From the NCBI GenBank assembly GCA_023362775.1, contig JALMGJ010000006.1, forward strand, positions 16,204,001 to 16,268,000: 64,000 nt of DNA. The letters are read 5' to 3'. Shown in pieces: positions 1 to 56,800 of this stretch. The notes beneath the pieces are model-generated. The model was given only the letters and a program-made list of their open reading frames with translations. It had not been told where the DNA came from and ran no database searches. This DNA is from Charina bottae (taxonomy: Eukaryota > Chordata > Lepidosauria > Squamata > Charinaidae). Made by a program: the position numbers and the translations under genes. Every line of letters begins with the position of its first letter. Position 1 is the stretch's first letter.

Positions 1-365
1 TATTTTAATTTTTATCCCGCCTTTATTATTTTTATAAATAACTCAAGGCAGCGAACATACCTAATACTCCTTCAAGAAGCTCCTTGGATAAGGAGTGAAA
101 CGTTTCCACTAAGAAAATAGAAATCCAGTTGACATGATTCAAGCCACAGACTGTTCCACCTGGATGACTGAGAACCTTCATAGACATACTAATACTCCTT
201 CCTCCTCCTATTTTCCCCACAACAACAACCCTGTGAGGTGAGCTGGGCTGAGAGACAGGGACTGGCCCAAGGTCACCCAGCCGGCTTTCCTGCCTAGGGC
301 GGGACTAGAACTCACAGCCTCCTGGTTTCTAGCCCAGCACCTTAACCACTAGACCAAACTGGCTA
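1..365 (-). repeat. tRNA-derived SINE, type A, cut by the window start
   Basis: Read on the minus strand, the unit starts near 365 with a tRNA-like head. It has an A-box-like TGGTCTAGTGG and a B-box-like GAGTTCTAGTCC, followed by a conserved core (ACCTTGGGCCAGTCCC) and an AT-rich tail. A second copy of the same family lies at 26071-26326, also on the minus strand. This copy is interrupted by the PLE fragment at 74-189. The family name within squamate SINEs is not certain. Confidence 0.7.
74..189 (+). mobile_element. Solo PLE terminal-repeat fragment inside a SINE
   Basis: These 116 bp are nearly the same as the terminal region of the PLE at 44954-52654, from the AAGCTCCTTGG hairpin to the end ...CTTCATAGACAT. 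They are flanked by a 12-bp duplication TAATACTCCTTC (62-73 and 190-201) that belongs to the interrupted SINE. No coding sequence is present. The end at CATAGACAT matches the outer left end of the large PLE insertion, which supports this as the true element terminus. Confidence 0.8.
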
Positions 366-5467: not shown

Positions 5468-6422
5468 GTTTAGAGTGTAGAGCTTCTAATGTAAAAGCCT
5501 AGCAAATTGGTTCCTAATTGCTTTGCTTGATTTTCTGGTTTCCGTTATTGCAGCAATGGCACTTTTTTTGTTCGAAAAATGATGGGAACAGAGATCGATG
5601 GAAGTTTAGATAACTGATTTGGTGTGGTTTGGATTTAGTAATCCAAAACTGGAGTAAACTGAGTGGAAAGATGCTATCACTCTGTCTTCAGGATAAAGAG
5701 ATGGCAATTAGTCTAATCATCACAATATACTTGAATTTTGTGCTGAATATGCAGCTGGAGAAACACATTCGGTTAGCTATAATTTGCTTTCTTGAGGTTT
5801 CACCTTTCCAATTTAAACAGGTGGCCTTGGGGAAGCTGATACTTCACATATGACTCTTACTCTTCATGTGATATATTTTGTTTTGGGTTAATATGCTGTG
5901 TGAATCCCATCATATAAGCCCTAGTTTACAATTACCGTCAACCTGGTAAGTTGTAATTTATTCAATAAACAATAGTTCATAAACCATGCCTTATTGTGAT
6001 GTAGAAATCAAGTCAATATTTCTCAGTCTCATTTTTCTTGTACTGAGTGCAGTGGAAGGCTATTATAAGGAATGCAGAGATGGCTTAAATGCTTTTAAAG
6101 TTGCCTAAAGTGGTGAATGTTATCCCTCACCATGATGGGGTTCAGGATCTTTTAATGGGGTCAGGCTCTTAGTACAAGGATATGCATGTATTTTGATTCC
6201 TGGTATGTTAATGCATTTATCTAGTAGAATAAGAACTGGCAGGGAGAGAGATAATTAGAGACTGCAGTGTGGCTGTTGCCGGGAATAGAGGATGGGCTAG
6301 TGCAAGGGTCGGAAATGGCAGCTCTTGAGCCAGATCTGGCTCTTTGGCCCCTCGGCTCTGGCTCTCTCTCTCTGTCTGCCGCCCAACATCCGGAAAGCCG
6401 GTCTCCGGAAGCAGCAGGCTTG

Positions 6423-6524
6423 GCGCGAACCCTGGGGAAGAAACAGAGACGCTGATTGGTGGAGGCTCAGAAGGAAGGACGCCTCCACCAATCAGCGTCT
6501 CTGTTTCTTCCCCAGGGTTCGCGC
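6423..6524. repeat. Perfect 44-bp inverted repeat upstream of the ADO-like ORF
   Basis: The left arm 6423-6466 and right arm 6481-6524 are exact reverse complements around a 14-bp loop (6467-6480). Each arm contains a CCAAT motif (ACCAATCAGCG on one strand). The arm ends 48 bp before the ADO-like ATG. It may be a remnant of a nested MITE or a rearrangement made during gene capture. Confidence 0.85.
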
Positions 6525-6571
6525 TGGGGCCCTCCGAGCAGTCGCTGGCTCCGGGTCGCGGGGATTCCGGC

Positions 6572-7228
6572 ATGGGCACCCGCCGGACGTGGGGAGAGCT
6601 GCTGGGGCAGGTGCGCGCCGAGGACCTGAGGCTGCAGCCGAGCAGGCCCTCTCCCGTGCCGGGCCCGCGGCAGCCGCCGGTGAGCTACATGCACATCTGC
6701 GAGACGGCGCACTTCAGCATGGGCGTCTTCGTGCTGCGCGCCAGCGCCTGCATCCCGCTGCACGACCATCCGGGCATGCAGGGGCTGCTCAAGGTGCTCT
6801 ACGGCATGCTGCGCATCGCCTGCCTGGACGCCGCCGAGGAGCCGGGGCCGGAGGGGGGGCCGGAGCCAGAGCCCAAGCGGCAGGACGCCGACGCCCCCAG
6901 CCTGCGCCCCCGCCGGCTGCGTGCCCTGCTGTGCTCGCACCGCCTCTACACGGCCGCCGCACCACCCTGCCTGCTGTCCCTGCAGCGCGACAACCTGCAC
7001 CAGATCGCGGCCGAGGGCGGCCTCGCCGCCTTCCTCGACATCCTGGCGCCGCCCTACGACCCGGCGCGCGGCTGCGACTGCCACTACTACCGGCTGCCCG
7101 CTGGACAGAGCCTGCCACCGCTGGCCGCGCCCGCCCCGCCGCGCCCGCTCTGGCTGCTGGAGACGCCGCAGGCGCCCGACTTCTGGTGCGGCGGGGAGCC
7201 CTACCCAGGCCCGCGCCTCTATCCCTGA
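6572..7228 (+). CDS. ADO-like: ADO-like thiol dioxygenase ORF within a hAT element
   Basis: The 218-codon ORF is clearly related to vertebrate 2-aminoethanethiol dioxygenase (ADO). That is a cytosolic non-haem iron enzyme that oxidises cysteamine and N-terminal cysteines of proteins, the latter marking them for oxygen-dependent degradation. Recognisable blocks are RAEDL (16-20), YMHICET (39-45), PLHDHPGM (62-69), RDNLHQI (139-145), AAFLDILAPPYDP (152-164), CHYYRLP (170-176) and WLLETPQAPDFWC (194-206), then GEPYPGP near the end. The three expected iron ligands are present as His64, His66 and His143. Human ADO is about 270 residues; this ORF lacks roughly the first 50, and the ATG at 6572 is the first after the inverted repeat. 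The frame is open further upstream to 6344, but that part reads through the hairpin. The region is very GC-rich, so absence of stops alone is weak evidence; conservation of catalytic blocks is the real support. Whether it is expressed is unknown. Confidence 0.8.
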   Translation: MGTRRTWGELLGQVRAEDLRLQPSRPSPVPGPRQPPVSYMHICETAHFSMGVFVLRASACIPLHDHPGMQGLLKVLYGMLRIACLDAAEEPGPEGGPEPEPKRQDADAPSLRPRRLRALLCSHRLYTAAAPPCLLSLQRDNLHQIAAEGGLAAFLDILAPPYDPARGCDCHYYRLPAGQSLPPLAAPAPPRPLWLLETPQAPDFWCGGEPYPGPRLYP

Positions 7229-7649
7229 GCGCCGCCGCCGAGGAAGCCCGAGCGCAGCTCCCGAGCGCCGCCCACCCGCCTGCCCGCCCGGGGAACGAGG
7301 TGGGACGGGGAGGTTGGAGGGAAGGGCCGGAGCGCCTCCCTCCCGGCCGCTCTCCCTCCCTCCCTCCCGCTGGCGCTTTTCCCTTCGGCGGCCGTGAGGC
7401 TTCGGTTGAGTGGATCCAACCAGCGGGACTCCACTCACTTATGACTCCTTCAACCAGAGAAAATGCAATTAATTTTTGTACGTTTCTATGGGCCGTAGTA
7501 TAATTAGAATAACGGGTCTATTCCAGAAACGCATTTGCACAGCCCTCCGCAACAGCCCACTTCGCCTCCCCGCCTTGAGAGGCCATGCAGGTCCCGTTCT
7601 CCCCCGCCCCTCCCAAAATCCAGATTCGCCCTTCCACCCGCCCCAATAA

Positions 7650-7735
7650 GCCACGTGATTGGCCCCCGCCCGCAAACCCCGCCCCCTTCCACGCGATTGG
7701 CCCCCGCCTGCAAACCCCGCCCCCTGGCTCTCGAG
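7650..7735. promoter_or_regulatory. Tandem ATTGG / CCCCGCCCC modules (NF-Y/Sp1-like)
   Basis: ATTGG at 7658 and 7696 (38-bp spacing), each followed by CCCCCGCC and CAAACCCCGCCCC. ATTGG is the inverted CCAAT box and the GC stretches fit Sp-family sites. The same module recurs in the hAT elements at 28551-28918 and 59218-59434. Promoter activity is inferred only from motifs. Confidence 0.5.
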
Positions 7736-8351
7736 CATTTCAAAATGTGCACGAGCATGTCAAAATGGCTCCCGGCATAAAAAAGTTTGCCGACCCCTGG
7801 GCTAGTGGTTAGCCTCCTTCCTTTCAGGTTGAGTCTAACCAAGGAAGCCTAGATGATAGAGACAGTGAGCACTTCAACCTAAAGTTCCTGCTTTTTAATG
7901 TCAGGTCAGTTGCTCATAAAACAACCAGGATTCAGTGCTGGATGAAGGCAATGATCTGGCAAGTATTATAGAGACCTGGTGATGGAAGAGAGAATCAGTC
8001 TTCTCCCACGCTAGCTAAAGTTGGAGAGCATAGGCATAGTGTGTCCTCCTCTCAGCAACTTTCAGTACCATTGACCACGGTATTTTTCTGGGCCATCTGG
8101 CGGGGTTGGGCCTTGGAGGCACTCTTTTGCAGTGGCTCTGGTCCTTCCAGTTGGGATGTGCCCAGAAAGTGGTGCTGGGGGCTAGTGCAACATATAGATT
8201 GTATTCCACAGAGTTCTTCTATCTTGTGCCCTCTGCTGTTTAACATGCAGAAGTTTGGGGAAGGTCATTTGGAGCTTTAGATATTGTTAATGTGCTGATG
8301 ACATCCAAATTTACTGCTCTCTACCTTCTAACTCCAAGGAAGCAATCCATA

Positions 8352-10425: not shown

Positions 10426-11582
10426 TCCCAGAAAAAACTTTAGTACTGTTGCCAAGAAAACTGCATGGTTGTGGCCATATATTCACTAGGAGCCAAGCTC
10501 AGCTTGAACCTTTAGCTTGTACATGGCATACTGATTAAGAGCCAGGAGGGAAAAAATTCACTTTTGCAAAGCAGGAATAAAAGCATGGTGGAACGGTATA
10601 GAAGACTGTAAATTCAGGCTGGAATTGATCTAAATGGAGATAAATTAAAATCACACTCGGGGGAAAAAATCCTTTCATTAATTAGGCCGCTAAATTCTGC
10701 AAGGACTCTGGGCAATATACAGTAAAAGCAACCATGCAGCACAATTTAAAAAAAAACACACTACCCAGATGCTATAAGAAAAGCAGCCATTAAAAGACAG
10801 GCAAACACACAGGATCCACCACCCACTCTAACCAAAGACCTGGGGAAATAGCCAGGTTTTCAGAGCTCTTTTGTAGAGGGCCAATGTAGGGGCCAAATGC
10901 ATGGGGGGAGGAGGGGAGGGATGGTCTTCCAGTATTCAAATCACTAATCAGGAAGATTGTGTGTAATCAATGTTTTCTTGTAAAAATGCATTGCACCTCT
11001 TTTCTGTGCAAAAATATCATGGCAAAATGCATATTAAAGCACAGATAACAAGAATGAATCTTGGCTGGCAGGAGAGTGTGTGAGACAAGAATGGTTAGTG
11101 TGTGAAATGAAAAGGCTGAAATAGCCTCCCTTAAAATAGGTGTGTCCTTAGCTATTGGCACTTTGTCTCCTGTAATCCTTAGCCACCATAAAGTGATTGC
11201 TCTCCTAAGCTGTCGCTGTGGGGTTCCTCATTGAGGAAGTGAAGACTCAATTGTCTCAATGCTTTGCCATCTTAAAAAAAATGAAATCCTGCAAAGAGAA
11301 ATCTAACATGTTGGGGGGGGGGATTATCCAAAGGCATCTCCCTAGCATGCTGACCTTGTTTTGTGAAGGGAATTTGTGGGGTGGACAGGAGCATTCTCCT
11401 GGTCGTGGGCCTTTTGTCATCCTGGAATGCTGTTGACCATCAGCTCCATCAGAAGCAACTGAATGACTGAACCACAACAAGAGAGAAGCATCCATCATAT
11501 GCTCCTCCTACCACTTTTCATTGGGATCATGGGATATACTTTGTAAGTAACATTCGGCTCAGTAATGCTCCCTACACTCATG

Positions 11583-11672
11583 TCGATGAAGGTTCTCAGT
11601 CATCCAGGTGGAACCGTCTGTGGCTTGAATCATGTCAACTGGATAATCCAGTTGACATGATTCAAGCCACAG
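11583..11672. mobile_element. 90-bp fold-back PLE insertion
   Basis: It is flanked by a 14-bp duplication TCCCTACACTCATG (11569-11582, 11673-11686). It begins with the PLE terminus on the minus strand (GATGAAGGTTCTCAGTCATC), runs to ...GTCAACTGGAT, then reverses after one base (11645). The arms 11618-11644 and 11646-11672 are a perfect 27-bp inverted repeat. The right arm ends at ...AAGCCACAG, the same point (within one base) where the right arm of the 7.7-kb PLE insertion ends. Confidence 0.85.
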
Positions 11673-11715
11673 TCCCTACACTCATGTTTAAAATTGGCAT
11701 TCTCATTCTCCAGAG

Positions 11716-11807
11716 GAGGGTTTCTCAACCTTGGCAATTTTAAGATGCGTGGACTTCAACTCCCAGAATTCCCCAGCCAGCCAAGTTGCCAAGGTTGAGA
11801 AACCCTG
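11716..11807. mobile_element. Short hAT-type MITE (GGGTTTCTCAACC)
   Basis: 92 bp with inverted ends AGGGTTTCTCAACCTTGGCA and TGCCAAGGTTGAGAAACCCT, and the duplication CTCCAGAG (11708-11715, 11808-11815). Related copies lie at 13762-13856 and 28409-28542, sharing GGACTTCAACTCCCAGAA. Confidence 0.8.
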
Positions 11808-12986
11808 CTCCAGAGGATGGGAGTAGGACCTAGTATAGGCCTAAGTTTTGAACTGGGAGTTTCTTAGTTTACTGGTCCATGCCCATTTCATGCCCATTCC
11901 AGTAGTGAAGTTTTTAAATGCAGCCCAATCCTATTTCTTGGTGCACTAGTGGAAAATACTTTTTTTCTGCATTTATTTTTAGTTTCCTAACTGATTCCCA
12001 TGTGCTCTTATAAGGCAACATCTAGTAGTGAGAGATGTCCTAACCCTTAGCTTTTTTATTCTTCTTGGAGGGATCAGCATAGTGTTTGTGCAGTGTGGTT
12101 ATGATTACTTAGAATGTGACTCATTCAAGCAGGACAAAATAAGCCTTCAGGCACACAGTCCACAACAGGGTTGGCAAAGGTCACCTGTTCCCTTCTGTTG
12201 TACAAAAAGTGGAAGGAAAACTTGACACATAGTTCAGCTTTTGATGTTCTTCCTACATAAATGGAATGATGGCTAGGTGGCCACACCTACATTTTCAGCT
12301 TGTTTTAACTGGATATTCATTGCAGGAACTTTCCACATTTTTCCCATCCATGATTGGAAAGCTGCCATATGTCATTGTGGGTACATTGAAAGAAGTAATA
12401 GCTGTGCGTTCATATAATAATAAACTAAATTCTGGCTTACTAAACTGCAGTATAAACATACAGTGTTGTGGTTCATATTGTTGTTAACTCCCGCTTCCCC
12501 CCTTTTCCCAAAACATCCATACCACATTGGTTTATTGTGTCCAGATAAGCCACCTATAAACAATAGTTCATTGGCTTAGAAATTCTTACTGAACTCTATG
12601 TCCAAGGTTCTTCACCTACTCTTGTGAAAATAGGGGCAAGAGGGAGAGAAACAAGCTGTGTCTCTACTATATGTTTTTCCTTCCTGTGCTCAGTGAACAT
12701 AGCCAGTGAGTTGTTGAAGAATGAGACAACCTTTCAGCCCATTTCTGAAGTTTTCTTTATTTTTTCAGGAACATTGGCTATGCAATTCATACTCAGAGTT
12801 TTGACAGAGAAAAACCTCTGCCTCCTGGATCTATCAACTGGCTTCCATAATTCCCAACAGCTGAGAATTTGGAGACTTGAAAGCCAACAGTTCCAGAGGG
12901 CACCAGATTAGAGAAGGTTGGCATTGAATAATGAAATATGTTCCACAGGGAACACTGAGTTTAAGCCAGCCCTATGTCTTGTTGAA

Positions 12987-27531: not shown

Positions 27532-30500
27532 ATTAATTATGCTTATGGAATAAACGAAGCAATTATTGATGAGCGAAATAATAGACAAGAAGACAGGCAG
27601 ACTGGAACAGATCAGCTGCCGGGGGTTGAAGTTGCTGAACTGGAAGCATGGAAGAGGGGATTAATGGAAAGATGAACCAGGCCCATGTCCTCTTTGACCG
27701 ATTTGTCCAGGCTTCCACCTGCAAAGGGACTTTGAAAGCCTTTCAGGAGCTCTGTGATTATTTGGAGCTGAAGCCCAAGGATTATCGTACTTTCTACCAC
27801 AAGCTCAAATCCAAGCTCAGTTACTGGAAAGCAAAAGCTCTTTGGGCCAAGTTGGACAAGAGAGGCTGCCACAAAGACTATAAGAAGGGGAAAGTATGCA
27901 CCAACGCGAAGGTGAGCATGGAAAAATGGCTTATGTTTCGTTAACTCCTGCTTACAAGAACGGCTTCCGTACGCTATATAGTTAGCTACGTGTAGATGAA
28001 CCAAAGCAACAAGCTGCTATTTCCCATAAGGGTCATAGCCTTTGTCCATGCTTTACTAATTTGAGCTGAATTATGCTGTGTTTCAGCTAAGATGAGGATA
28101 ATGCTCATTTAATATTTGGATTAAATTGAAGCTTTGGAATCCATCCTTAAAAAGGAAAGACCCCGATTGCTTATGCTTGCTTGTGCTATTTGCTCATATT
28201 GGTTTGTGTTTAATTAACAGTCTGAAATCAGCTCATGCATATTGCCTTCCATTGGCAGTTACTGATGTCTTGAGCAACCAAGTGATGTACATGAATAGAT
28301 GAAACAACTGTTACGAATGGTTGTTTGCTCCCATTGCATCTATTCTATCCCTTAAAATGTTGGTTGGCTCCCAAAATGGCGGTTGGAGATCTCAGTGTTT
28401 GTTTAGAGCAGTGTTTCTCAACCTCAGCAACTTTAAAATGGATGGACTTCAATTCCCAGAATTTCCCAGCCAGCATGCTAGCTGGGGAATTCTGGGAGTT
28501 GAGGTCCAACCATCTTTAAGTTAGTGAGATTGAGAAACACTGGTTTAGAGCAAGGGTCGGAAATGGCGGCCACTCATCCTTTCCTCCGACAGCCCCGGCT
28601 CCACTAGGGTCGCCCGCCCGGAGTGCCTCCTTGCCGAGGAAATGGCTGACTGGAGCAGAAGGGCTCCTTGCTTCCCCGCTTTCCAGCAGCCATCTTCTCC
28701 TCCCCCCCCCCCCGCCGAAGGCAGCAGCAACATCAAGTCAGCCACCCCCTTCCACGCGATTGGCTCCCGCCCGGAAAATCCCGCCCCCTTCCACAAGATT
28801 GGCCCCCGCCCGCAAACCCCGCCCCCTTCCATGCGATTGGCCCCCGCCCGCAAACCCCGCCCCCTGGTTCTCGAGCATTTCAAAATGGCTCCCGGCATAA
28901 AAAGTTTGCCGACCCCTGGTTTAGAGCAATGAATGAGTCAGTCCCCGTTTAATTGTGGAGGTCATTAGATAACTTAGAGCTACTCACTGTCTCTCAGTTG
29001 AACAGCTGGAGGGTTTTTGAACAGAATAAGAAAAGATCTCCCTGTGTGCCTTCTTGCGCTTCATCAAGGAAAGACCGGATATAAAATCGCAATAGAATAA
29101 ATTAAAAATAAAATTAATAGGATTAAGAGCTGGTGCACAATGCAGACTACATTTTCAGCAACATGTATCTTTTGAAGGTAGTAGCTTATTCTGCCTACAT
29201 TTTGGGGTTGTTCTAAATGTATTGCAAGTTTTCTGTTATTTCTCTTTTTTAAAAAATGTTCCTCACTGATACCTGTTTTACTTCATTTCACTCAAACAGT
29301 GAAAAAGCAGTTTAGGTTTTCAGGAAAAAAATACCATTTTGTGGGGAGGGTATTAGGCCGTTTAGCGATGCGTTAGATAGGAAAGTGTTTATTTTATTTT
29401 TAATTTTCTACTTGGATTCTGATCTTAACAAGGCTCTCTTGAATAATCAAATAGCCAGCTTTATATAAAATAGTATAAACTTAAGTTACTCTTTGAAAAC
29501 TTCAATTAAACTTTTAAATAGCTGACTTTCTTAATCTAAACTCCCACTCCTGTCAGCAAATCCTCTAGTAACTGTTCTGGGTTCTGTCAAACAAAGTCAT
29601 GTTTAAACAATGATTCACTTGAACTTGTGGCCTGCTCTGTGCCAGAGAAATGGCCGCAGCTGTGTTTGCTTCTGTTCCTTATGTGCAGTAACAACAGGCT
29701 CCTAAGATGAGTACGTACAGTTCACTGTGTGCTTCATCTCTCAGTATCCTACTTTTAGCCTTATGGTTTCTGCTCTGGCCGCCTGGTAGCTTAGTGATGC
29801 ATATCCATATTCATCTCCCATAATGAAATCCATCAAGGATTATGGTTATCCAACAGGAAGACAAATGTTTTCTTCCAAAGAATAGAAAGGGGAATGCGGG
29901 AGGTTCTCTTACGTTCCAGTGATAAGAAGAGAAGAAGCTGTTGAAAACAAAGGAATGGGCAGGAGATTCAAATGACTGTAAACACCACTGCTATGAAGCG
30001 TGATGCCTTTGAAGATTAGCTGGAGGGGGTGTTTTCCTATGGTTTCCAGATCTCTCTCCTATCTGTTCCATTCTATTGTTTCTCTCTCTCCCCCCCCCCC
30101 CCGCCATTTTTCATAGAATCATAGGGTTGGAAAGGACCTTGGAGGTCTTCTAATCTAACCTCCACTCCATTCAGTTATGTTCCTCCCTTCTGGCCCTGGG
30201 GCAGCTACACCCCTTTGCTTTACCCCCCCCCTCTTTTTTTGCTTTTCTGCTAAACGGTGGAGGGAAGGGTGTTTGTGTCTGTATCATATGTTTCTGTGTC
30301 TGAAAGTATTTTGTGTGTGCAAGAATGAATGGCCTGTGCAGATGGGGATCAGTTAATTTTGTAAATGTGGTGTCTTGATTTATAGCCAATTAATTATCAT
30401 TGTTCGTTTTTCTTCTTTTTGTATGTCCCGGGTGCTTTTTGTTCGTTTGTTTTTAAAGAACATGAGTTCTATATGTATATTTGCACACATTTGGGTGGGG

Positions 30501-41857: not shown

Positions 41858-44800
41858 TGTTTTGTTGGAAGCAGGAAATTTATCTGAAATGTATCTACTG
41901 TATATGTAACAGTATGCACCTTCAGGCTCATCAAACATGCTGTGTATATGCATTTATTAGCATCTTCCATATTTCATTTCTGTGCCCTCCTGTTTGTCCC
42001 TGTGCTAGTCAATGTGTTTATCCAGAGATGCTGGTCATTTTCTGTATACAGTTACTACGGCTTAGCAAGGAATAACACACTTTTCTCTTAGTTCAATTTA
42101 AGCCATTTTTTACCCCATGCACAATCTGAATATAGTTAGGTGGACATAGAGAAAGTTGCCCAGTTATGCTTATAACAGGCAACACCCTTAAGCCCAAAAC
42201 TCAGGGTAAAAAATGCCATTGCTATGTTAAGCCCAAACAAACAATATAAAGTTTAATGTGATCGCTTGCTTCACACAATTTGGAAAAAAATGTTTGGGCT
42301 TCCACAACATATGAACCACAAATTGTTCAACCTCTCTAGCTTGGACTAGCGTGTGGTGTGAACACAGCCTTACAATTTGATCCTATATATACCTACTCAG
42401 AAGTAAGTCTCACTGTGTTTGGTGAAATTTTCCTTCTAGTAAGCATTCCAGTGAACTCCCAAGCTCAGGAAATGTGATATGTGGAACGGGCCAGGGAAGA
42501 TTTGTCTAGACAGATTGATCAGGGTCATAATCAAGATCACAATTCATATGGACGGGGATGGGTTGAAAACTAGTGACACATATATTTAACTGGTATTGCT
42601 AAAATGGCATCGAGTACACCAGCTTTTTAGTATTACAGAAACAGATCATTTGAAAATGGGCCATTGTGTACTTATCTATCTTAAAAAGTCTGGGCTAACA
42701 GCAGTGTAATTAAAAACTATTCTTTTCCAATATGCATTTTTCTTTCATTAAATCAGGGCTTTCCAAAGTTTTCCTGCGGCGACACACCAACCGCCGTTGG
42801 TGTGTCGCCGCAGGAAAACCCGGAAGTGCCGCCGTTGCGGCAGCGTGCAAAAATCCGGAAGCGCTGCTGCCGCTTTCGGGTTTTTGCGTGCCGCCGTTGG
42901 TGTGTCGCTGTGGGAAAACCCGGAAGCGCTGATGATTAGTACTCATTAGTACTGCCTGTCTTTCTCTGTTTTAACTCCCTTAAATACTCCAGCCTAATCT
43001 CACTCAACTTTCTGAGTTTTCTAATTGCATTTGGCTCTTCTCAACAGGCCAAGTACTGCCCTGGTTTGAAGACTGCATGCAGTGTGCAGTTTGTCAGATG
43101 CCACTTCTCTTATCTTTGCAAGGCAAAGATATTTCCAGTGGTATGTACATCACTGGCAGTCAGCGAAGCACAGCTCAGGAGAATTGGAAATAAGGCCATA
43201 ATCAAAATGACTTCTTCTGTCTTATCCCTGCCTCTGAACAGGAGGTTCTTCCTCAGCTTAACCAACCAACCAGCTCATAAAGATAACTTGAAACTAACTC
43301 AGTTAAACACAGAAGTTTCTTGCAATATGTAAGGCTCAGAAAGGGCCCTACTTCATTAATTTGAAAATATAAATGCCAACTTCAAGCTGTTTAGGTATGG
43401 ATCAGGCAGTTATTCTAGATGGGGGAAAAAGATAACCATTTGACAGAAATAGTTGGGACACAACAGTAAAAGCCACCCACCAAGTGGAACATAGTCGTTT
43501 TGCTCTTAGGGGTAAAGTCATGTCTGTCAATGTCTTTTATATCACTGAAGCTGGCATCAATGTCCTGTTTTTCCTAGAGAGAGCATCTATAGGTTGTTGC
43601 CTCAAACTACACCGGAGAACGTCAGCAAGAACTTCAGCCAATACAGCATTGATCCTGTCACTCGGTACCCCAACATCAATGTCAATTTCCTAAGACCAAG
43701 CCAGGTAATTGGCTGTATTCTGTGGTGGTCTAGGGCATATGATGGACATCTTGTGCAACCCAGTTGAAGGACTGCATTAAAATAATATAAATACAGCATT
43801 GAAGTATTACAACATGTTAGCTGCAGCAACAGAAGAGAATAAATCAAAGCTTGTCACAAAAGTAAAGTCTTGGGGTCACTTTTGACTTTGAGTAGTTATG
43901 TTCATTTCTGTCCATGGATTATGGATTAAGCCAGAGCTTTCCAAACTGTGTGTCGCGACACAAAAGTGTGTCGCCACACACAGTCGGCTGTGTCGCCACA
44001 CAACCCGGAAGTGGCAGTGGGGGCGTGCACGGCGGCGGCGGCACCGCCGCACCATCGGTGCTTCCGCGTTTTAGCGGAGGCTGCCGCCGCCATTCACGCC
44101 CCCGCCCGCACCGGGTTTTCCCGCGGTGACACATGAAAATCCGAAGGCGCTGTAGCCGCGGCGGCACGCAAAGACTGAAAGCGGCAGCAGCGCTTCCGGG
44201 TTTTCACGCGGCGACACACCAAGGGCGGTTGGTGTGTCGCCGCGGGAAAACTTTGGAAAGCCCTGGATTAAGCAATAGAAGGTATTGTTTATTTTATATA
44301 CATGTCCAAATAATTAAGACAAAAAGGTGTATTGGAAAGGGAAATAATTTCAGAATTATTTGGGCAGATTTTTTGTTAATCTTTATTCCATGAAATGTAT
44401 AAACAGGTGGCAGCCGCTGGCTGCCCTTATCTAAATTTGGAGGTGAAGCATCATTGGGCCTGTTTAGTACTTAGATGGGAGATCTTGGTGAATCGTGGGG
44501 TGTACAAGAGAGGCAAAACTATTTATATTGTATTTTAATCTTGTTTTATTGTAAGCTGCCCAGAGTCCCCCGTTGGGGGACATGTGCGGTCATATAAATT
44601 TGAATAATAAATAAATAAAAACATGGAAACAGTTTGGAACAGTCTTTGACATTAATATGCAATGTTCAGATGCATTAAAATTAAGTGCAGGTGTCATCCT
44701 GACAAAACTATCAAGCAGTGGAACAGCTTGCCTCCCAGAGTTGTGGGTGCCCCGTTGCTGGAGGTTTTCAAGAAGACATTAGACAACCATTTGTCTGAGA

Positions 44801-47800
44801 TGGTTTGAGGATTCCTGCCTTGGGCAGGGGGTTGGACTAGAAGACCTCCAAGGTCCCTTCCAACCCTATAATTCTATCATTCTAAGCAATAGTAATTGGC
44901 CATTAATCTTCCTAGCTTCCTATGCTATGTTGGAAGTGACTGTTCTGCAGATATGTCTATGAAGGTTCTCAGTCATCCAGGTGGAATTGTCTGTAGCTTG
45001 AATCATGTCAACTGGATTTCTATTTTCTTAGTGGAAACGTTTCACTCCTTATCCAAGGAGCTTCTTCAGTCTGAGTAAAGTTAGTAAGGGAATCCTTAAA
45101 TATGTTTCTAGGCTGGCTGTGTGACCTTGCACCTGGGGCTAGGTCATGGTTATTTTTGAGATGTTTGTTTTTAAGTCCCTTTATCATCTAAAGGAGGATC
45201 GTTAAGATTACCCTGCTGCTGTTGAGCTTGCGAAATGGTCTTAATCTTCCTAGGCACAGAAGACAAAGCAGGAAGGAAGATAGGGGAAAGGTTATGCCTG
45301 AGGCCCCCACCTCTATTCAAGGAAGGATTTTCCAAGTTGGCATGAATGGATTCCTTGACCCCTCTCTCAAACCACCTATCTTCTCTGTCTAAAATGTGAA
45401 CATTAATGTCCTCAAATGAGTGTCCTTTTTCCTTTAGATGAAGATAAACTGCTGACTCTGGTCCTGTGGTGTTACTTCTCCTGTGTTGGGCCATCCTCCT
45501 GTACAACGGTTGTTTGGTTTCTCCAATGTAGAGTTCAGAGCACTCCTCACTGCACTGGATTGCATACACTACATTGCTTTCCTTGTGTTTTGGAGTTTGA
45601 TCTTTGGGGTGTACAAGCCTCTGTCTCAGTGTGTTGGTGGGTTTGAAATATACAGGTATGTGGTGTTTGCCAAATATCCGTTTTATCTTTTCAGACACGC
45701 CAGCCATGTAAGGAATGACCAGGTTCTTCCGTTTACTCTGAGTCTCAGCCCTATCTGTCGCTGTTTTAGGTCTGGTAGACTTAGATTTAGTGAAGGCCCA
45801 ATTTGGATATCCACAGGCCTGCAGAGCTGTTCTCAGATGCTGCTGTTCATTCTTTTTGGAATCCATGGAGGTGGGGATGGTTTCTGCTCTGTGTGACAAT
45901 GTCCTGATGACTCCTAGTTTGTGCTGCAGTGGATGGTGGGAGTCAAACATCAGGTATTGATCTGTGTGTGTGGGTTTCCTGTAGATCCCTATTTCTAGCT
46001 TGCCACCGGTCCCAATGAGGACTTCACAGTCTAGGAATGCCAGTCTGTTGTCCTTGGTGTCTTCTCTGGTGAAGCTAATGTTGGCATCTATAGTGTTTAT
46101 ATGGTCCGTGAAGGCCTGTACTTCCTGGGCCTTGATTTTGACCCAGGTGTCATCCACATACCTAAACCAGTGGGTGGGCACCGTTCCCTGGAATGTGTTG
46201 AGTGCTTTCTTCTCCACTTCTTCCATGTATAAATTGGCCACAATGGGTGACACAGGAGAACCCATGGCACAGCCGTGTTTTTGTCTGTAAAAGTCACCTC
46301 TGTATGTGAAATAAGTGGTGTTAAGACACAGGTCCAGAAGATGGCAGATCTGGTTTGGGTTGAGATGGCTTCTCCTTTCCAGGGTGCTGTCCTCTTCTAG
46401 TCTCTTCCTGACAGCGGATAGAGCATGAGTGGTGGGGATGCTGGTGAAAAGGGAGGACACATCAAAGGAGACCATAGTTTCATCTGTATCCAGTTTCAGG
46501 ATCTTTGCTTTGGAAACAAATTCTTCCGAATTATGGATGTGGTGTTCAGAGTGTCCAACTAGAGGTGCTAGTATGGTAGAGAGGTGTTTGGCAATGTTGT
46601 ATGTTACCGAATTGATGCTGCTGACTATGGGTCGGAGGGGTGTTCCTTCCTTGTGGATCTTAGGAAGTCCGTAGATGCAGGGGATGGCTTCTCCAGGATA
46701 CAGACGGTGGTAGGTAATCCTATCGATGGAGCCATCATGTTCCAATTGTTTCAAACTGTCTATTGCCTTTTTCTTGTAATTGTTGGTGGGGTCTCTTTTC
46801 AGTTTTTCATATGTATGGTGATCCTCCAAAAGTGAGGTAATTTTATTGTGGTAGTCTGCAGTGTTTAGAACCACAGTACATCTTCCTTTGTCAGCAGGTA
46901 AAATGGTGATGGTTTCATCTTTGCTGAGGGCTGTCAGGGCTCTCCTCTCTTGGACGGTAAGGTTGGGGGGAGGAGGTTGAGCACTGGACAGAGCTGCAGA
47001 TATTTTAAGCCGGAGTTGTTCTGCTTCTTCAAAAGGTAGGTGGTTGTTGTGGATGGCAGATTCTGTGGCTGTAATGAGCTCCACAACCGGAACTTGCTTG
47101 GGAGTGATGGCAAAATTAAGACCTTTGGCTAGGACATCTCTCTCTGGTTGGGTAAGTTCTCTGTCTGAGAGATTTTTCACCCACATGTTCTTTTTGTCCT
47201 CTGTGGTCCTGTTGTTGTTGTTCCTCCCAGCGGTTTCTCCAGTTCCTTGTTTCTGCTTGCTGCGAGAAAGAAGAATGTCAAATTTCTTAGTTTGCCTCTC
47301 CTTTGTCTTGTGATGCTGGGCCAGCTGTACTTTATTGCCAAGCTGAATAACTCTATCCAGGATTGGGTCAGGAAGGGTGGCTGTGAGTTCCTGGTGAAGG
47401 TTTTCAAAATTGTATTGCAGGGCATCAATGGTGAAGTGGACTTGCCTTATTCTTTCATTTAGAAGATGTCTTTGTGCCTGCTGCAGGATCTGATCTGCTC
47501 TGTGACCCTTAACTGTAGATTGCAGGCGTAGGCTTGTCGGGATGAGTCTCTGTTGTCTGCATCTGAGGTTAAAACGTAGGTGGTTTCTATAGTCTGCCAC
47601 CTTTCTAGCTGTCTTCTCGAATTTCCTTACCAACTTCAGGGTTTCATCCCCAAAATGTATGGCAATATGTCTATGAAGGTTCTCAGTCATCCAGGTGGAA
47701 TTGTCTGTAGCTTGAATCATGTCAACTGGATTTCTATTTTCTTAGTGGAAACGTTTCACTCCTTATCCAAGGAGCTTCTTCAGTCTGAGTAAAGTTAGTA

Positions 47801-50800
47801 AGGGAATCCTTAAATATGTTTCTAGGCTGGCTGTGTGACCTTGCACCTGGGGCTAGGTCATGGTTATTTTTGAGATGTTTGTTTTTAAGTCCCTTTATCA
47901 TCTAAAGGAGGATCGTTAAGATTACCCTGCTGCTGTTGAGCTTGCGAAATGGTCTTAATCTTCCTAGGCACAGAAGACAAAGCAGGAAGGAAGATAGGGG
48001 AAAGGTTATGCCTGAGGCCCCCACCTCTATTCAAGGAAGGATTTTCCAAGTTGGCATGAATGGATTCCTTGACCCCTCTCTCAAACCACCTATCTTCTCT
48101 GTCTAAAATGTGAACATTAATGTCCTCAAATGAGTGTCCTTTTTCCTTTAGATGAAGATAAACTGCTGACTCTGGTCCTGTGGTGTTACTTCTCCTGTGT
48201 TGGGCCATCCTCCTGTACAACGGTTGTTTGGTTTCTCCAATGTAGAGTTCAGAGCACTCCTCACTGCACTGGATTGCATACACTACATTGCTTTCCTTGT
48301 GTTTTGGAGTTTGATCTTTGGGGTGTACAAGCCTCTGTCTCAGTGTGTTGGTGGGTTTGAAATATACAGGTATGTGGTGTTTGCCAAATATCCGTTTTAT
48401 CTTTTCAGACACGCCAGCCATGTAAGGAATGACCAGGTTCTTCCGTTTACTCTGAGTCTCAGCCCTATCTGTCGCTGTTTTAGGTCTGGTAGACTTAGAT
48501 TTAGTGAAGGCCCAATTTGGATATCCACAGGCCTGCAGAGCTGTTCTCAGATGCTGCTGTTCATTCTTTTTGGAATCCATGGAGGTGGGGATGGTTTCTG
48601 CTCTGTGTGACAATGTCCTGATGACTCCTAGTTTGTGCTGCAGTGGATGGTGGGAGTCAAACATCAGGTATTGATCTGTGTGTGTGGGTTTCCTGTAGAT
48701 CCCTATTTCTAGCTTGCCACCGGTCCCAATGAGGACTTCACAGTCTAGGAATGCCAGTCTGTTGTCCTTGGTGTCTTCTCTGGTGAAGCTAATGTTGGCA
48801 TCTATAGTGTTTATATGGTCCGTGAAGGCCTGTACTCAGAGAAGTACAACATTAGCTTCACCAGAGAAGACACCAAGGACAACAGACTGGCATTCCTAGA
48901 CTGTGAAGTCCTCATTGGGACCGGTGGCAAGCTAGAAATAGGGATCTACAGGAAACCCACACACACAGATCAATACCTGATGTTTGACTCCCACCATCCA
49001 CTGCAGCACAAACTAGGAGTCATCAGGACATTGTCACACAGAGCAGAAACCATCCCCACCTCCATGGATTCCAAAAAGAATGAACAGCAGCATCTGAGAA
49101 CAGCTCTGCAGGCCTGTGGATATCCAAATTGGGCCTTCACTAAATCTAAGTCTACCAGACCTAAAACAGCGACAGATAGGGCTGAGACTCAGAGTAAACG
49201 GAAGAACCTGGTCATTCCTTACATGGCTGGCGTGTCTGAAAAGATAAAACGGATATTTGGCAAACACCACATACCTGTATATTTCAAACCCACCAACACA
49301 CTGAGACAGAGGCTTGTACACCCCAAAGATCAAACTCCAAAACACAAGGAAAGCAATGTAGTGTATGCAATCCAGTGCAGTGAGGAGTGCTCTGAACTCT
49401 ACATTGGAGAAACCAAACAACCGTTGTACAGGAGGATGGCCCAACACAGGAGAAGTAACACCACAGGACCAGAGTCAGCAGTTTATCTTCATCTAAAGGA
49501 AAAAGGACACTCATTTGAGGACATTAATGTTCACATTTTAGACAGAGAAGATAGGTGGTTTGAGAGAGGGGTCAAGGAATCCATTCATGCCAACTTGGAA
49601 AATCCTTCCTTGAATAGAGGTGGGGGCCTCAGGCATAACCTTTCCCCTATCTTCCTTCCTGCTTTGTCTTCTGTGCCTAGGAAGATTAAGACCATTTCGC
49701 AAGCTCAACAGCAGCAGGGTAATCTTAACGATCCTCCTTTAGATGATAAAGGGACTTAAAAACAAACATCTCAAAAATAACCATGACCTAGCCCCAGGTG
49801 CAAGGTCACACAGCCAGCCTAGAAACATATTTAAGGATTCCCTTACTAACTTTACTCAGACTGAAGAAGCTCCTTGGATAAGGAGTGAAACGTTTCCACT
49901 AAGAAAATAGAAATCCAGTTGACATGATTCAAGCTACAGACAATTCCACCTGGATGACTGAGAACCTTCATAGACATATTGCCATACATTTTGGGGATGA
50001 AACCCTGAAGTTGGTAAGGAAATTCGAGAAGACAGCTAGAAAGGTGGCAGACTATAGAAACCACCTACGTTTTAACCTCAGATGCAGACAACAGAGACTC
50101 ATCCCGACAAGCCTACGCCTGCAATCTACAGTTAAGGGTCACAGAGCAGATCAGATCCTGCAGCAGGCACAAAGACATCTTCTAAATGAAAGAATAAGGC
50201 AAGTCCACTTCACCATTGATGCCCTGCAATACAATTTTGAAAACCTTCACCAGGAACTCACAGCCACCCTTCCTGACCCAATCCTGGATAGAGTTATTCA
50301 GCTTGGCAATAAAGTACAGCTGGCCCAGCATCACAAGACAAAGGAGAGGCAAACTAAGAAATTTGACATTCTTCTTTCTCGCAGCAAGCAGAAACAAGGA
50401 ACTGGAGAAACCGCTGGGAGGAACAACAACAACAGGACCACAGAGGACAAAAAGAACATGTGGGTGAAAAATCTCTCAGACAGAGAACTTACCCAACCAG
50501 AGAGAGATGTCCTAGCCAAAGGTCTTAATTTTGCCATCACTCCCAAGCAAGTTCCGGTTGTGGAGCTCATTACAGCCACAGAATCTGCCATCCACAACAA
50601 CCACCTACCTTTTGAAGAAGCAGAACAACTCCGGCTTAAAATATCTGCAGCTCTGTCCAGTGCTCAACCTCCTCCCCCCAACCTTACCGTCCAAGAGAGG
50701 AGAGCCCTGACAGCCCTCAGCAAAGATGAAACCATCACCATTTTACCTGCTGACAAAGGAAGATGTACTGTGGTTCTAAACACTGCAGACTACCACAATA

Positions 50801-53800
50801 AAATTACCTCACTTTTGGAGGATCACCATACATATGAAAAACTGAAAAGAGACCCCACCAACAATTACAAGAAAAAGGCAATAGACAGTTTGAAACAATT
50901 GGAACATGATGGCTCCATCGATAGGATTACCTACCACCGTCTGTATCCTGGAGAAGCCATCCCCTGCATCTACGGACTTCCTAAGATCCACAAGGAAGGA
51001 ACACCCCTCCGACCCATAGTCAGCAGCATCAATTCGGTAACATACAACATTGCCAAACACCTCTCTACCATACTAGCACCTCTAGTTGGACACTCTGAAC
51101 ACCACATCCATAATTCGGAAGAATTTGTTTCCAAAGCAAAGATCCTGAAACTGGATACAGATGAAACTATGGTCTCCTTTGATGTGTCCTCCCTTTTCAC
51201 CAGCATCCCCACCACTCATGCTCTATCCGCTGTCAGGAAGAGACTAGAAGAGGACAGCACCCTGGAAAGGAGAAGCCATCTCAACCCAAACCAGATCTGC
51301 CATCTTCTGGACCTGTGTCTTAACACCACTTATTTCACATACAGAGGTGACTTTTACAGACAAAAACACGGCTGTGCCATGGGTTCTCCTGTGTCACCCA
51401 TTGTGGCCAATTTATACATGGAAGAAGTGGAGAAGAAAGCACTCAACACATTCCAGGGAACGGTGCCCACCCACTGGTTTAGGTATGTGGATGACACCTG
51501 GGTCAAAATCAAGGCCCAGGAAGTACAGGCCTTCACGGACCATATAAACACTATAGATGCCAACATTAGCTTCACCAGAGAAGACACCAAGGACAACAGA
51601 CTGGCATTCCTAGACTGTGAAGTCCTCATTGGGACCGGTGGCAAGCTAGAAATAGGGATCTACAGGAAACCCACACACACAGATCAATACCTGATGTTTG
51701 ACTCCCACCATCCACTGCAGCACAAACTAGGAGTCATCAGGACATTGTCACACAGAGCAGAAACCATCCCCACCTCCATGGATTCCAAAAAGAATGAACA
51801 GCAGCATCTGAGAACAGCTCTGCAGGCCTGTGGATATCCAAATTGGGCCTTCACTAAATCTAAGTCTACCAGACCTAAAACAGCGACAGATAGGGCTGAG
51901 ACTCAGAGTAAACGGAAGAACCTGGTCATTCCTTACATGGCTGGCGTGTCTGAAAAGATAAAACGGATATTTGGCAAACACCACATACCTGTATATTTCA
52001 AACCCACCAACACACTGAGACAGAGGCTTGTACACCCCAAAGATCAAACTCCAAAACACAAGGAAAGCAATGTAGTGTATGCAATCCAGTGCAGTGAGGA
52101 GTGCTCTGAACTCTACATTGGAGAAACCAAACAACCGTTGTACAGGAGGATGGCCCAACACAGGAGAAGTAACACCACAGGACCAGAGTCAGCAGTTTAT
52201 CTTCATCTAAAGGAAAAAGGACACTCATTTGAGGACATTAATGTTCACATTTTAGACAGAGAAGATAGGTGGTTTGAGAGAGGGGTCAAGGAATCCATTC
52301 ATGCCAACTTGGAAAATCCTTCCTTGAATAGAGGTGGGGGCCTCAGGCATAACCTTTCCCCTATCTTCCTTCCTGCTTTGTCTTCTGTGCCTAGGAAGAT
52401 TAAGACCATTTCGCAAGCTCAACAGCAGCAGGGTAATCTTAACGATCCTCCTTTAGATGATAAAGGGACTTAAAAACAAACATCTCAAAAATAACCATGA
52501 CCTAGCCCCAGGTGCAAGGTCACACAGCCAGCCTAGAAACATATTTAAGGATTCCCTTACTAACTTTACTCAGACTGAAGAAGCTCCTTGGATAAGGAGT
52601 GAAACGTTTCCACTAAGAAAATAGAAATCCAGTTGACATGATTCAAGCTACAGATGTTCTGCAGATACTTAATTCGGTTTGCCCACTCTTCTGTCACTAT
52701 TCTTGTCACCTGACATTTGATGTGATACATGCACCCTTTTTGGACTGCTGCAGGTACGCCATTTGTATGATACAGGAGACTTGAGGGATATTCATCTGGA
52801 GATAGAAAATTTGGTGAACTCTAGGACACCAAAGTTATCACGGAATGGTAAGTAATTCCATTTATTTGGTGTTGCTGTCTTTTTTTCTTCCCTTCCTGGA
52901 AATTTAAAATTGGATTCCATGCCAGCTGCCATCGCTGGTTACATTTTCAAATAGTGCATTAAATATTAAGAGAATATTGGCTGGATATTTACTTAAGCTG
53001 CGTAATAGCCATTAGTGATCTCTTTGACCCTCCAGGCTCTTATAAATACACTTAGCATTTTTACATTCTTATGTATAGGAATGAGAACAAAAACACTTCA
53101 CTTAGAGCTCTGTGTGCATTAAAAGCAGAGAGACAGAGGGTTTTGTCATGCTATTAAAACCAGGAAATTGGTATTTTGTGACAGATGTAACACTGAGTTT
53201 ATGAGCAACCTTTCCTAGTGTGATGCCCTCTTAGTTGAGTTAGGTTAAACTAACCTATAAGAGATATGGACACATACAAAAAATTGTAATAGCGAAATGT
53301 ATTGGGACACAACATATCTCATGAAAACAGAGTTCCCCTTTACAGCAGGGCAAGGCTTGGACAGAGCTCCCCTCTTACAGCAGGGCACAAGGCAGGCACT
53401 AGGACCTGCGCAGAATCCTGGCAGGGCCCGGAGGCAGCAGCAGCGAGGCGCTTGAGGCTCTGAGCCTCCGACTCAGAGGTTTCTTGTTACGTTCGCGCGA
53501 CACACCTACACACTGCAGCCGACACACTAACGTGTCGCAGCACACAGTTTGGAAAGCTCTGCTCTAGTCCAATAATATGTGGAGGGCACCAGTTAGTATA
53601 AATTGATTTATAACAGGGGTGGACAGCCTATAGCCCTGGGGCTTCATGTAGCCTTGAGTTCCATTTTCAGTGCTCAAGAAATCCCTCCTAAGCATGATTG
53701 CTGAAGACTGATTTCACAGTTCTTGGCCATTTTGAATTGGGAAACAGAAGAAAAATGTAGTATGAAGTCCTATAATAGACAGCATAGTCTACCATGGTAG

Positions 53801-56800
53801 AGATGGGCGGGGATAAATCCAAATAATAAATAAATAAATAAAAAAGAAAGAAAGAAAGAAAGACAACTCTCGATCCTCCCCAAACCCTAGCTTCATCCAC
53901 ATGTATGCTGCACCTCAGCTACTTTATGCTCCTTAGCCCCCTGCCCAGATATTACAACTGGCCTTTGTCCACCAAAAGATAGATCCTCCCTGATTGAGAA
54001 TACTAGTTACATAGTCACTTCAAGAACTGAAATATCTCAATGTTTATTTCAGAATCTGTGGCCCGCTCTAGCAAACTTCTGGGCTGGTGCCAGAGGCAGA
54101 CCGATGGATATGCTGGTGTGAACATAACAGACCTTACAATGTCATGGAAGAGTGGCCTAGCGCTGTGTGCTATTATTCATCGATTTCGTCCAGACCTGAT
54201 GTAAGCAGTAGGATTTGCTTGTGAATGGCTATCTGAAGAAACTTTGATAGCATTAGTCAGGCAATTGAGCAATGTTTGTATTTTCCTAAGCAACAGTAGA
54301 TAGAAAGAGTTTTTGTTATAACTTAAAAAATGTATTTTTCTCCTTCCAGAGATTTTGATTCCCTAGATGAACACAATGTAGAGAAGAATAATCAGCTGGC
54401 GTTTGACATTGCTGAGAAGGAGCTTGGAATCTCTCCCATTATGACTGGCAGAGATATGGCATCAGTTGGTGAACCAGACAAGCTGTCCATGGTTATGTAT
54501 CTCACCCAGTTTTATGAGATGTTCAAGGACTCTCTTCCTTCCAATGGTAAGACATGTCGGATGCATCTACTAGAACAGGGCTTTCCAAAGTTTTCCCGCG
54601 GCGACACACCAACCGCTGTTGGTGTGTCGCCGCGGGAAAACCCGGAAGTGCCGCCGTTGCGGCAGCGTGCAAAAACCCGGAAGCGCTGCTGCCGCTTTCA
54701 CGTTCTTGCGCACCGCCGTTGGTGTGTCGCCGCGGGAAAACCCGGAAGCGCTGATGATGATCAGCGCTTCCGGGTTGTGTGGTGACACACCAGGCTGTGT
54801 GTGGCGACACACTTTTGTGTCGCGACACACAGTTTGGAAAGCTATGTACTAGAATCTTTGAAAGTGGCAATGTACAATTGACTGCTCTTGTTCCATTCTA
54901 GAACAGTTTATTTTCTTTGATGCTGAAAGAAAATGTTTTCCGTGCCTAAACTTTTCTCGTATCAAGATAGCGAATACAATATAGCAAACTGGATTCCCAT
55001 CTTTTCTTATGGGTCGTTATTTTTTGAAGCATACTGGATTGAATTATTTCTGAGGTGATGAGATAGAAAGGAGGTTGACCTCTCTGCTACTGCCACAGTC
55101 ACATTGATTTCCCATCAAGACTAGCTCTTTGTGATATGTTTGCATTGCTGTTGAATTATGCAAAAATATTCTAGCTGGTTCTGTTACAGTTTAATATTAA
55201 AGACAAAAATGTGACTTAATAAAAGTAGGAACTTCTAGAGGTAGAAAAGTGAAGTCTTTCTCTTAGAGCAAGTCTATGGCTAACAGGTTGGAGTGAAGAA
55301 CATTCTGTACCTGATGTTACCATTTCAACCAAAAGGATAGTAGCAATAATATCTGAAAATGTAGTTGTGTTGCAAAGGCTAAAGTAATTTTGCAGGAAAG
55401 ATATGAAAATAAATTGACCACAGAAAGATAACACCTAATGCTTGTTAAGCATCCCTGGTGCTCACATCTCTGTGTGACGTATTTCATTAATTGATATGGG
55501 AAGGGAGGGAGGCAAACATTGTCTTACTATTGATCTCAAATGATCACAATGAAAATCAATTTCTAGAATGGAGAAAAAGATTAAATGGAGGATTAGTTGT
55601 GGTGCTTTGCAACAGAATGTAGATGGTGGAAATGCCTACACCTGTGTTGCAAAAAGCCAAAATCAAAGTCCCAAAATGGACACTCTTTTAGGAGATTTCC
55701 TATTTTGTTATGCCTCCATTGATATTTTATTTCTTCTCACAGATAATCTGGAACTGAATGCAGAAGAAAAAGCTGCTTTAATTGCTAACACCAAATCTCC
55801 AATCTCCTTCTTCAGCAAGTTGGGACAGAGCATTTCACGGAAACGGACACCAAAGGTAATAACAGTTGTTTTGAAATAAAAAAACCATAAGATGTATATA
55901 TATGAGCTCTTACTTACTCTGATCTAGCTTCCATGCATGCATTTCTTTCTGGATTGAGAGTAATGTACAAAAAGTGATGATACAGTAAGATTGTGATTTA
56001 ATAGCCCACTTGGAGGGAAGGAATATCAGATAAATCCAAATTTATATTATTTGCATTGTGCAGTTATGCAAATGATGTAAATGGTCATAATTTTTCAGTG
56101 TTGGACTCTTTCAGAAATAACAGATTTTGCCCAAGGTTTGAGGGTGAAGTCCAAACTAAAATGTTGTCCAGTGCATCAAAAGTCCACTGAATAGAATTCT
56201 AGAGAATCAAGGTTTTACTGTACTTAATTCCTAGGGCTGTGTTTTGATATGAAGCTTTTGAAGCTGGATGCATGATTTTTGAGGGTCACTGGGTAGCTTG
56301 GAAGGGAAGCTCTGAGTGGCTGGTGCTGACAGTGCCAATCTCCTAGAATGATGAATATGATGGTCATTCATTGACTTTTTTTAAGAGTCTGCACATCTGT
56401 AAACATTCATTTTATCTGTTTCACTCTAGAAAGTTTGTCATTATTTGCTTGGTTACTTTGCTAATGTAGAGTAGGTAGAATAAATGTAAAAGGTATGCTT
56501 CATATAGATAATTAGTAATCTCTGAAAAGCAAGAAAAAGTAGCCTTGAAATGTGTGCTAAATGTTCGTAACAGTAAGTTCCTGGTGGCCCTTGTTTGAAC
56601 TGAAATAGAAGTTTGGTCCATATTTGGACTGACACACCTGTGTTCTGCTGAACTACAGCCAACATCCTGGATCTATTAATACAAATGTAATAGTATCAAA
56701 AGACAGTATCAAAATACAGTTAAATCATATGATGCCATAGGCATGGATGTTTTACAGAGACAATGTAATTCCCAAGATGTGCATGGCATCAGCCCTGAAA

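What the first reader, a model, noticed from the sequence alone, without database searches (positions are those of the whole stretch)
11583..11672. A 90-bp PLE insertion repeats the same fold-back geometry and the same end points
Seen: the 14-bp duplication TCCCTACACTCATG, a perfect 27-bp inverted repeat with one central base, a left end at the PLE terminus (GATGAAGGTTC) and a right end at AAGCCACAG. The 7.7-kb insertion shows the same asymmetry: its left arm reaches the terminus and its right arm stops 36 bp short at AAGCTACAGA. Two insertions differing 85-fold in length share both boundaries to within one or two bases. This suggests a fixed second priming or cleavage site inside the terminal repeat, and a general integration rule for this PLE.
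Basis: partly seen in the sequence, partly recalled or inferred. Interest (0 to 1): 0.9.

Follow-up and report, generated by a model that had tools for sequence, protein, structure and literature searches.

The report
Fold-back insertions of a Penelope retroelement
Two insertions of a Penelope-type jumping gene, one 90 bases and one 7.7 kilobases long, share the same two end points, and these match where a related lizard enzyme starts copying its RNA in the test tube; most of the pattern was known, but these copies suggest that both cut DNA strands at the target were extended at once.

Summary
The 90-bp insert (11583/4-11672) has a 14-15-bp target duplication and 27-bp perfect arms with a 1-nt spacer. 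Its tail+ end is CATCG|ACAT (sense); its tail- end, CCACAG|, lies 34 nt further in. The 7,701-bp insert (44954-52654, 13-bp duplication) has the same ends to within 1-3 nt.

A fixed second site is not new to science. An optional ~31-bp tail on one of two inverted pLTRs is described for Penelope elements (PMC3846280). In vitro, the Anolis Penelope protein starts reverse transcription at two adjacent sites bounding the tail, and cuts and extends both target strands (PMC11167929). An ungapped protein match puts the outer end here at the codons of the published Anolis start (ORF nt 111-118); the inner end fits by alignment and tail length only.

Best reading: both 3' ends of a staggered cut primed cDNA, one at the outer and one at the inner site, and the two cDNAs were joined head-to-head. 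Near-equal arms (27/28 and 3846/3807 nt) suggest a shared template end, perhaps one RNA. A general rule is not shown: there are two fold-backs, and the genome-wide census could not be run (genome search gave no answer, 17 of 17 calls).

The parts
11569..11583 (.). E2 left target-site duplication TCCCTACACTCATG(T)
   Evidence: exact direct repeat
11584..11617 (-). E2 tail (34 nt between inner and outer boundary), antisense on the + strand
11618..11644 (-). E2 tail+ arm, 27 nt from the inner boundary
11645..11672 (+). E2 tail- arm, 28 nt (the spacer base 11645 matches the element on this side); ends at the inner boundary CACAG|
11673..11687 (.). E2 right target-site duplication
44941..44953 (.). 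E3 left target-site duplication TGTTCTGCAGATA
44954..44990 (-). E3 tail plus ACA (37 nt)
44991..48836 (-). E3 tail+ arm, 3846 nt: pLTR, full ORF, pLTR, partial ORF, antisense
48837..48846 (.). E3 fold point: 10-nt filler CAGAGAAGTA; its first 8 nt also occur inside the adjacent arm
48847..52653 (+). E3 tail- arm, 3807 nt, ends at the inner boundary; 52654 A is one further element base
52655..52667 (.). E3 right target-site duplication
49924..52473 (+). 849-aa ORF with RVT_1 and GIY-YIG (identical copy at 45171-47720, minus strand); both boundaries lie within its first 19 codons
49861..49890 (+). hammerhead-like core CTGAAGA...GAAA in the pLTR, aligned with the Anolis PAc hammerhead; no Rfam hit
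49939..49940 (+). inner boundary in an intact unit, CTACAG|ACAA (ORF nt 16/17)
49973..49974 (+). outer boundary in an intact unit, CATAG|ACATAT (ORF nt 50/51)
74..183 (+). E1: simple 5'-truncated insertion of the same element with tail, outer end CATAG|ACATA; 18/19-nt duplication (55-73 and 184-201) with one base missing in one copy

Best explanation
Double-ended target-primed reverse transcription by a Penelope-like element. The RT/GIY-YIG protein makes a staggered cut that leaves two 3' ends (13-15 nt apart in the fold-backs), which gives the target duplication. Each 3' end primes cDNA on the element's RNA inside the start of the ORF: one at the outer site (CATAG|ACAU, giving the tail), the other at the inner site 34 nt upstream (CACAG|ACA, no tail). 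Both cDNAs run towards the RNA 5' end and are joined head-to-head by end joining, which makes the fold-back. E2 is a very short product of this reaction and E3 a long one. Shown: both boundaries in both copies, the duplications, the arm identity, and the fit of the boundaries to published start sites of a relative. Inferred: that both strands were primed in one event, and end joining at the fold.
For: Ends, duplications and arms. PAc cleaves and extends both strands, starts RT at two adjacent sites bounding the 30-40-nt tail, and shows no start-site difference between strands (PMC11167929). PAc start 111-118 (ACAACACA) covers codons R37-I40; BLASTP aligns PAc E34-R76 with E13-R55 here without gaps (E=3e-5), so the homologous stretch is ORF nt 48-55, and the outer ends of E1, E2 and E3 lie at nt 50-56 counting shared bases. 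Outer ends share 5 (E1), 4 (E2) and 3 (E3) nt between element and native target, as an annealed primer would; inner ends share 0 in 2 of 2 (chance of 3 or more about 0.054 per end in a simple match model). The E3 fold has a 10-nt filler, 8 nt of it present in the neighbouring arm, as in error-prone end joining (recalled). The 1-nt spacer of E2 is too small for a hairpin loop.
Against: Only two fold-backs; tail+/tail- in both has p=0.25 under independent equal use. Frangieh et al. [quoted passage not shown] here the outer ends show 3-5 nt of homology. Near-equal arms in both copies (log-uniform lengths: E3 0.004, E2 0.014) are not expected from two unrelated RT runs; they need a shared template end or copying of one arm from the other. 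The text that I read does not give the position of the second PAc start, nor say whether 111-118 is the inner or the outer one; I take it as the outer from the alignment.
Confidence: 0.7

Rival explanations
1. Snap-back: one cDNA primed at the outer site folds on itself at its 3' end and is copied back; second-strand synthesis stops about 34 nt before the start, for example because that stretch is still bound by protein or RNA.
For: Near-equal arms in both copies and 100% arm identity.
Against: The 1-nt spacer of E2 leaves no hairpin loop; E3 has a filler and 39 nt missing on one side of the fold; the stop would have to coincide with an RT start site by accident.
Confidence: 0.15
2. Self-priming on an antisense transcript, as proposed in 2013 for inverted pLTRs of Adineta vaga.
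For: Palindromes at inverted junctions in Adineta vaga (PMC3846280).
Against: Does not predict that both outer ends of the insertion equal RT start sites on sense RNA, nor homology to the target at the tail+ end.
Confidence: 0.07
3. The 90-bp copy belongs to a short fold-back family that spreads as such, so its ends were inherited and it is not an independent case.
For: It differs from the E3 unit at 4 of 65 aligned positions, so E3 itself was not its source.
Against: No second 90-bp copy in the window; the rest of the genome was not searched.
Confidence: 0.08

Closest known systems
Poseidon_Ac (PAc), Penelope-like element of Anolis carolinensis (PMC11167929)
   Same: RT plus GIY-YIG ORF, tandem units with pLTRs, hammerhead core with GAAACGT in the pLTR, two adjacent RT start sites inside the start of the ORF with the tail between them; the outer end here lies at codons homologous to the published start 111-118
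   Different: Only 15 of 43 residues identical in the N-terminal match (the full PAc protein was not at hand); the sites here are at ORF nt 16 and 50; the PAc main text does not treat inverted copies ('inverted' occurs once, for inverted dT)
Pen2a_Av and other Adineta vaga Penelope copies (PMC3846280)
   Same: Inverted pLTRs head-to-head, target duplication, 31-bp tail on one of the inverted pLTRs, palindromes at inverted junctions
   Different: In Pen2a the arms are very unequal (181-bp inverted pLTR against a whole unit); explained there by self-priming on an antisense template
L1 twin priming (recalled, no paper read)
   Same: Both target strands prime cDNA within one insertion, giving an inversion
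   Different: In twin priming the two segments come from different, adjoining parts of the RNA; here both arms copy the same part

Membership tests
Canonical (EN+) Penelope-like element | single ORF with reverse transcriptase and GIY-YIG endonuclease | tested here: met
   849 aa, PF00078 and PF01541 above Pfam cut-offs (22.9 against 22.6 bits for GIY-YIG); best near-full-length relative 68% identical over 96% (Xenopus; 120 of 1471 hits listed)
Canonical (EN+) Penelope-like element | tandem units producing pLTRs | tested here: met
   1.13-kb stretch present twice in direct orientation in each arm, 100% identical
Canonical (EN+) Penelope-like element | optional 30-40-bp tail | tested here: met
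   present at 3 of 5 RT-start-type ends (E1, E2, E3 outer), absent at 2 of 5 (E2, E3 inner)
Canonical (EN+) Penelope-like element | hammerhead ribozyme in the pLTR | tested here: inconclusive
   core-like motif aligned with the PAc hammerhead; no Rfam hammerhead hit; the bare motif is common by chance (7 in the window, mean 4.65 in 20 simulations)
Canonical (EN+) Penelope-like element | RT groups with telomerase in a tree | not tested
   no tree built
Double-ended TPRT product | both ends of the insertion are RT start sites | tested here: inconclusive
   outer end at codons homologous to a published start site; inner end by nucleotide alignment and tail length only; no biochemistry on this element
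L1-type twin priming | the inverted segment comes from a different part of the RNA than the other segment (recalled definition) | tested here: not met
   the arms are copies of the same stretch

The most novel reading that the evidence does not exclude
One RNA, two polymerases in convoy. A protein dimer holds one RNA molecule and both cut ends; one subunit starts at the inner site and the other 34 nt behind at the outer site, and both run to the same RNA 5' end. This would make exactly one tail per fold-back obligatory, make the arms near-equal, and explain why Penelope elements have two adjacent start sites at all: one for each target strand in an event.
Probability: 0.25. Interest if true: 0.7.

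Novelty: new member of a known kind. Interest (0 to 1): 0.4.

Why it matters
How Penelope-like elements integrate is open; the 2024 biochemistry calls the steps after reverse transcription still to be validated. Clean fold-back copies with target duplications are natural products of that reaction, and these two fit both-strand priming at the two known start sites better than the older self-priming idea. If one tail per fold-back and near-equal arms hold genome-wide, the reason for two adjacent start sites becomes directly testable.

Tried and rejected
Hammerhead cleavage as the source of the second boundary: rejected. The core lies at 49861-49890; the cut expected after GTTTC (recalled rule, in line with PAc's cut 26 nt into its ORF after GAAACGUC) is about 43 nt from the inner boundary. 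L1-type twin priming on different parts of one RNA: rejected, because both arms copy the same stretch. The 35 Rfam matches to the 90-bp stretch are all below the families' gathering scores, most of them microRNA families that answer to the hairpin; at gathering scores the whole window had 0. RNA folding around the sites gave no signal overall (z -0.41, 70 of 200 shuffles fold at least as well). A stem AUCCAG/CUGGAU with the inner site in its loop appears, in 2 of 4 contexts of an intact unit (one of the two failures lacks the stem's first base) and in the E1 and E2 stretches; I do not rely on it. Further copies in public collections: viral contigs by pattern and by protein, genome contigs by pattern and by protein (21 stretches matched a peptide pattern, 0 a relative); these are not animal genomes. 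Paper searches: (20 of 25 listed). Judging by titles, starts of abstracts and the passages opened, I saw no paper that ties inverted Penelope copies to priming of both strands; most subscription papers, PMC8557442, PMC2377424, PMC522041 and PMC19282 and all supplements were not available. PMC12910113 and PMC5718144: passages only, nothing on this point in those shown. No PDB chain matched the ORF by sequence (E up to 0.01).

Full report
What is there. The 90-bp insert (E2) is as described: a 14-15-bp direct repeat flanks it (11569-11583, 11673-11687), and it contains a 27-bp perfect inverted repeat with a 1-nt spacer. Its arms are the longest among perfect inverted repeats of the window with a spacer of 10 nt or less, and 20 first-order Markov sequences with the window's dinucleotide frequencies gave at most 13 nt. 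The 7.7-kb insert (E3) runs from 44954 to 52654 between two copies of TGTTCTGCAGATA. Its arms are identical over 3,805 bp, and each arm holds one full unit plus part of a second in direct tandem. A third copy (E1, 74-183) is a simple 5'-truncated insertion with an 18/19-nt duplication that differs by one missing base. BLAST of one unit against the whole window finds these three insertions and no others at E<=1e-3.

What it is. The element is a Penelope-like retroelement. Its intact 849-aa ORF (49924-52473, and an identical copy at 45171-47720) carries reverse transcriptase and GIY-YIG endonuclease domains. The best near-full-length relative listed is a Xenopus protein, 68% identical over 96%, followed by fish proteins; some shorter matches reach 71% (120 of 1471 hits listed, and only 7,979 candidates were scored). 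The pLTR has a hammerhead-like core that aligns with the hammerhead of the Anolis element PAc but is not recognised by Rfam; the bare motif is not rare by chance.

The two boundaries. Numbered from the ORF start, the inner boundary is nt 16 (CACAG|ACA) and the outer is nt 50 (CATAG|ACAT). The 34 nt between are the tail. E1 ends at the outer site; E2 and E3 have one outer and one inner end each. E3 carries three more bases (ACA) at the outer end and one more (A) at the inner end, so 'within one or two bases' in the finding is within one to three.

Match to published work. Of PMC11167929 I read parts 1 to 3 of 4 of the main text and passages, not the supplement. It reports that the PAc protein cuts and extends both target strands, starts reverse transcription at two adjacent sites inside the RNA, that the tail is the stretch between them, and that genomic ends fall on those sites; the most common start is 111-118 nt into the ORF. 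Of PMC3846280 I read passages and the Discussion: inverted pLTRs head-to-head, target duplications, and a 31-bp tail optionally on one of the inverted pLTRs are described for Adineta vaga, with self-priming on an antisense template as the proposed cause. PMC8969392 (passages) lists inverted pLTRs and 3' extensions as known peculiarities. A BLASTP match without gaps (15 of 43 identical, E=3e-5) puts PAc nt 111-118 at nt 48-55 here; the three outer ends lie at nt 50-56, counting bases shared with the target. The inner ends fall in an ACA-containing stretch that MAFFT sets near PAc's ACAUACAACA. That stretch is where I infer the second PAc site, from the tail length; the text that I read gives it no number and does not say which of the two sites is 111-118, so this half of the match is weaker.

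Mechanism. In a staggered cut both 3' ends carry the future target duplication. If both prime reverse transcription, the insertion has an RT start at each end and the cDNAs meet head-to-head, which is what E2 and E3 show. Base sharing between element and native target just beyond the outer end is 5, 4 and 3 nt in E1, E2 and E3, and 0 at both inner ends; chance of 3 or more is about 0.054 per end in a simple match model. This suggests an annealed primer at the outer end. It differs from the in vitro report of starts not homologous to the cut DNA, and rests on three ends. At the E3 fold there is a 10-nt filler of which 8 nt also occur in the adjacent arm, and one arm is 39 nt shorter; at the E2 fold the spacer is 1 nt. 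Both argue for joining of two ends rather than a hairpin.

The open point. Arm lengths from the inner boundary are 27 and 28 nt in E2 and 3846 and 3807 nt in E3. Two independent runs would agree that well with probability about 0.014 (E2) and 0.004 (E3) if lengths are log-uniform between 20 and 4000 nt, or 0.0005 and 0.019 if uniform (the length model is my assumption). So the two cDNAs probably had a common template end, or one arm was copied from the other. Two polymerases on one RNA, starting at the two sites, would account for this and for the single tail; snap-back would account for the arms but not for the inner end. The in vitro work saw no start-site difference between the strands, so any one-site-per-strand rule would have to hold within an event, not by strand. 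Against near-equal arms as a rule stands Pen2a of Adineta vaga, with very unequal arms.

Limits. Two fold-backs do not make a rule: with equal independent use of the two sites, both being mixed has probability 0.25. The census that would settle it could not be run, since the genome search gave no answer in 17 of 17 tries. Verdict: real, correctly described in the main, mechanism largely anticipated by published work, with a modest new point in the paired ends and near-equal arms.

Noticed in passing
42768-42819, 54590-54641, 54739-54776, 44207-44244: GC-rich repeats with perfect inverted repeats of 24, 24, 17 and 16 nt; sequence unrelated to the Penelope element.
   Followed up: partly
7651-7725, 28745-28865, 59267-59371: Three short tandem arrays of 38-39-bp units that share CCCGCAAACCCCGCCCCCT when read circularly; the first lies in a 61.7% GC stretch (6001-8000).
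   Followed up: no
11701-11740 and 11783-11822: 40-nt inverted repeat, 85% complementary, beside the 90-bp insert; looks like a separate interspersed repeat.
   Followed up: no
45171-47720 and 49924-52473: Two identical intact 849-aa Penelope ORFs in one palindrome, so the insertion is probably young.
   Followed up: partly
11644-11646: The 90-bp arms meet at the base of a possible RNA stem (AUCCAG/CUGGAU) whose loop holds the inner boundary; the stem is seen, in 2 of 4 contexts and in the E1 and E2 stretches.
   Followed up: partly
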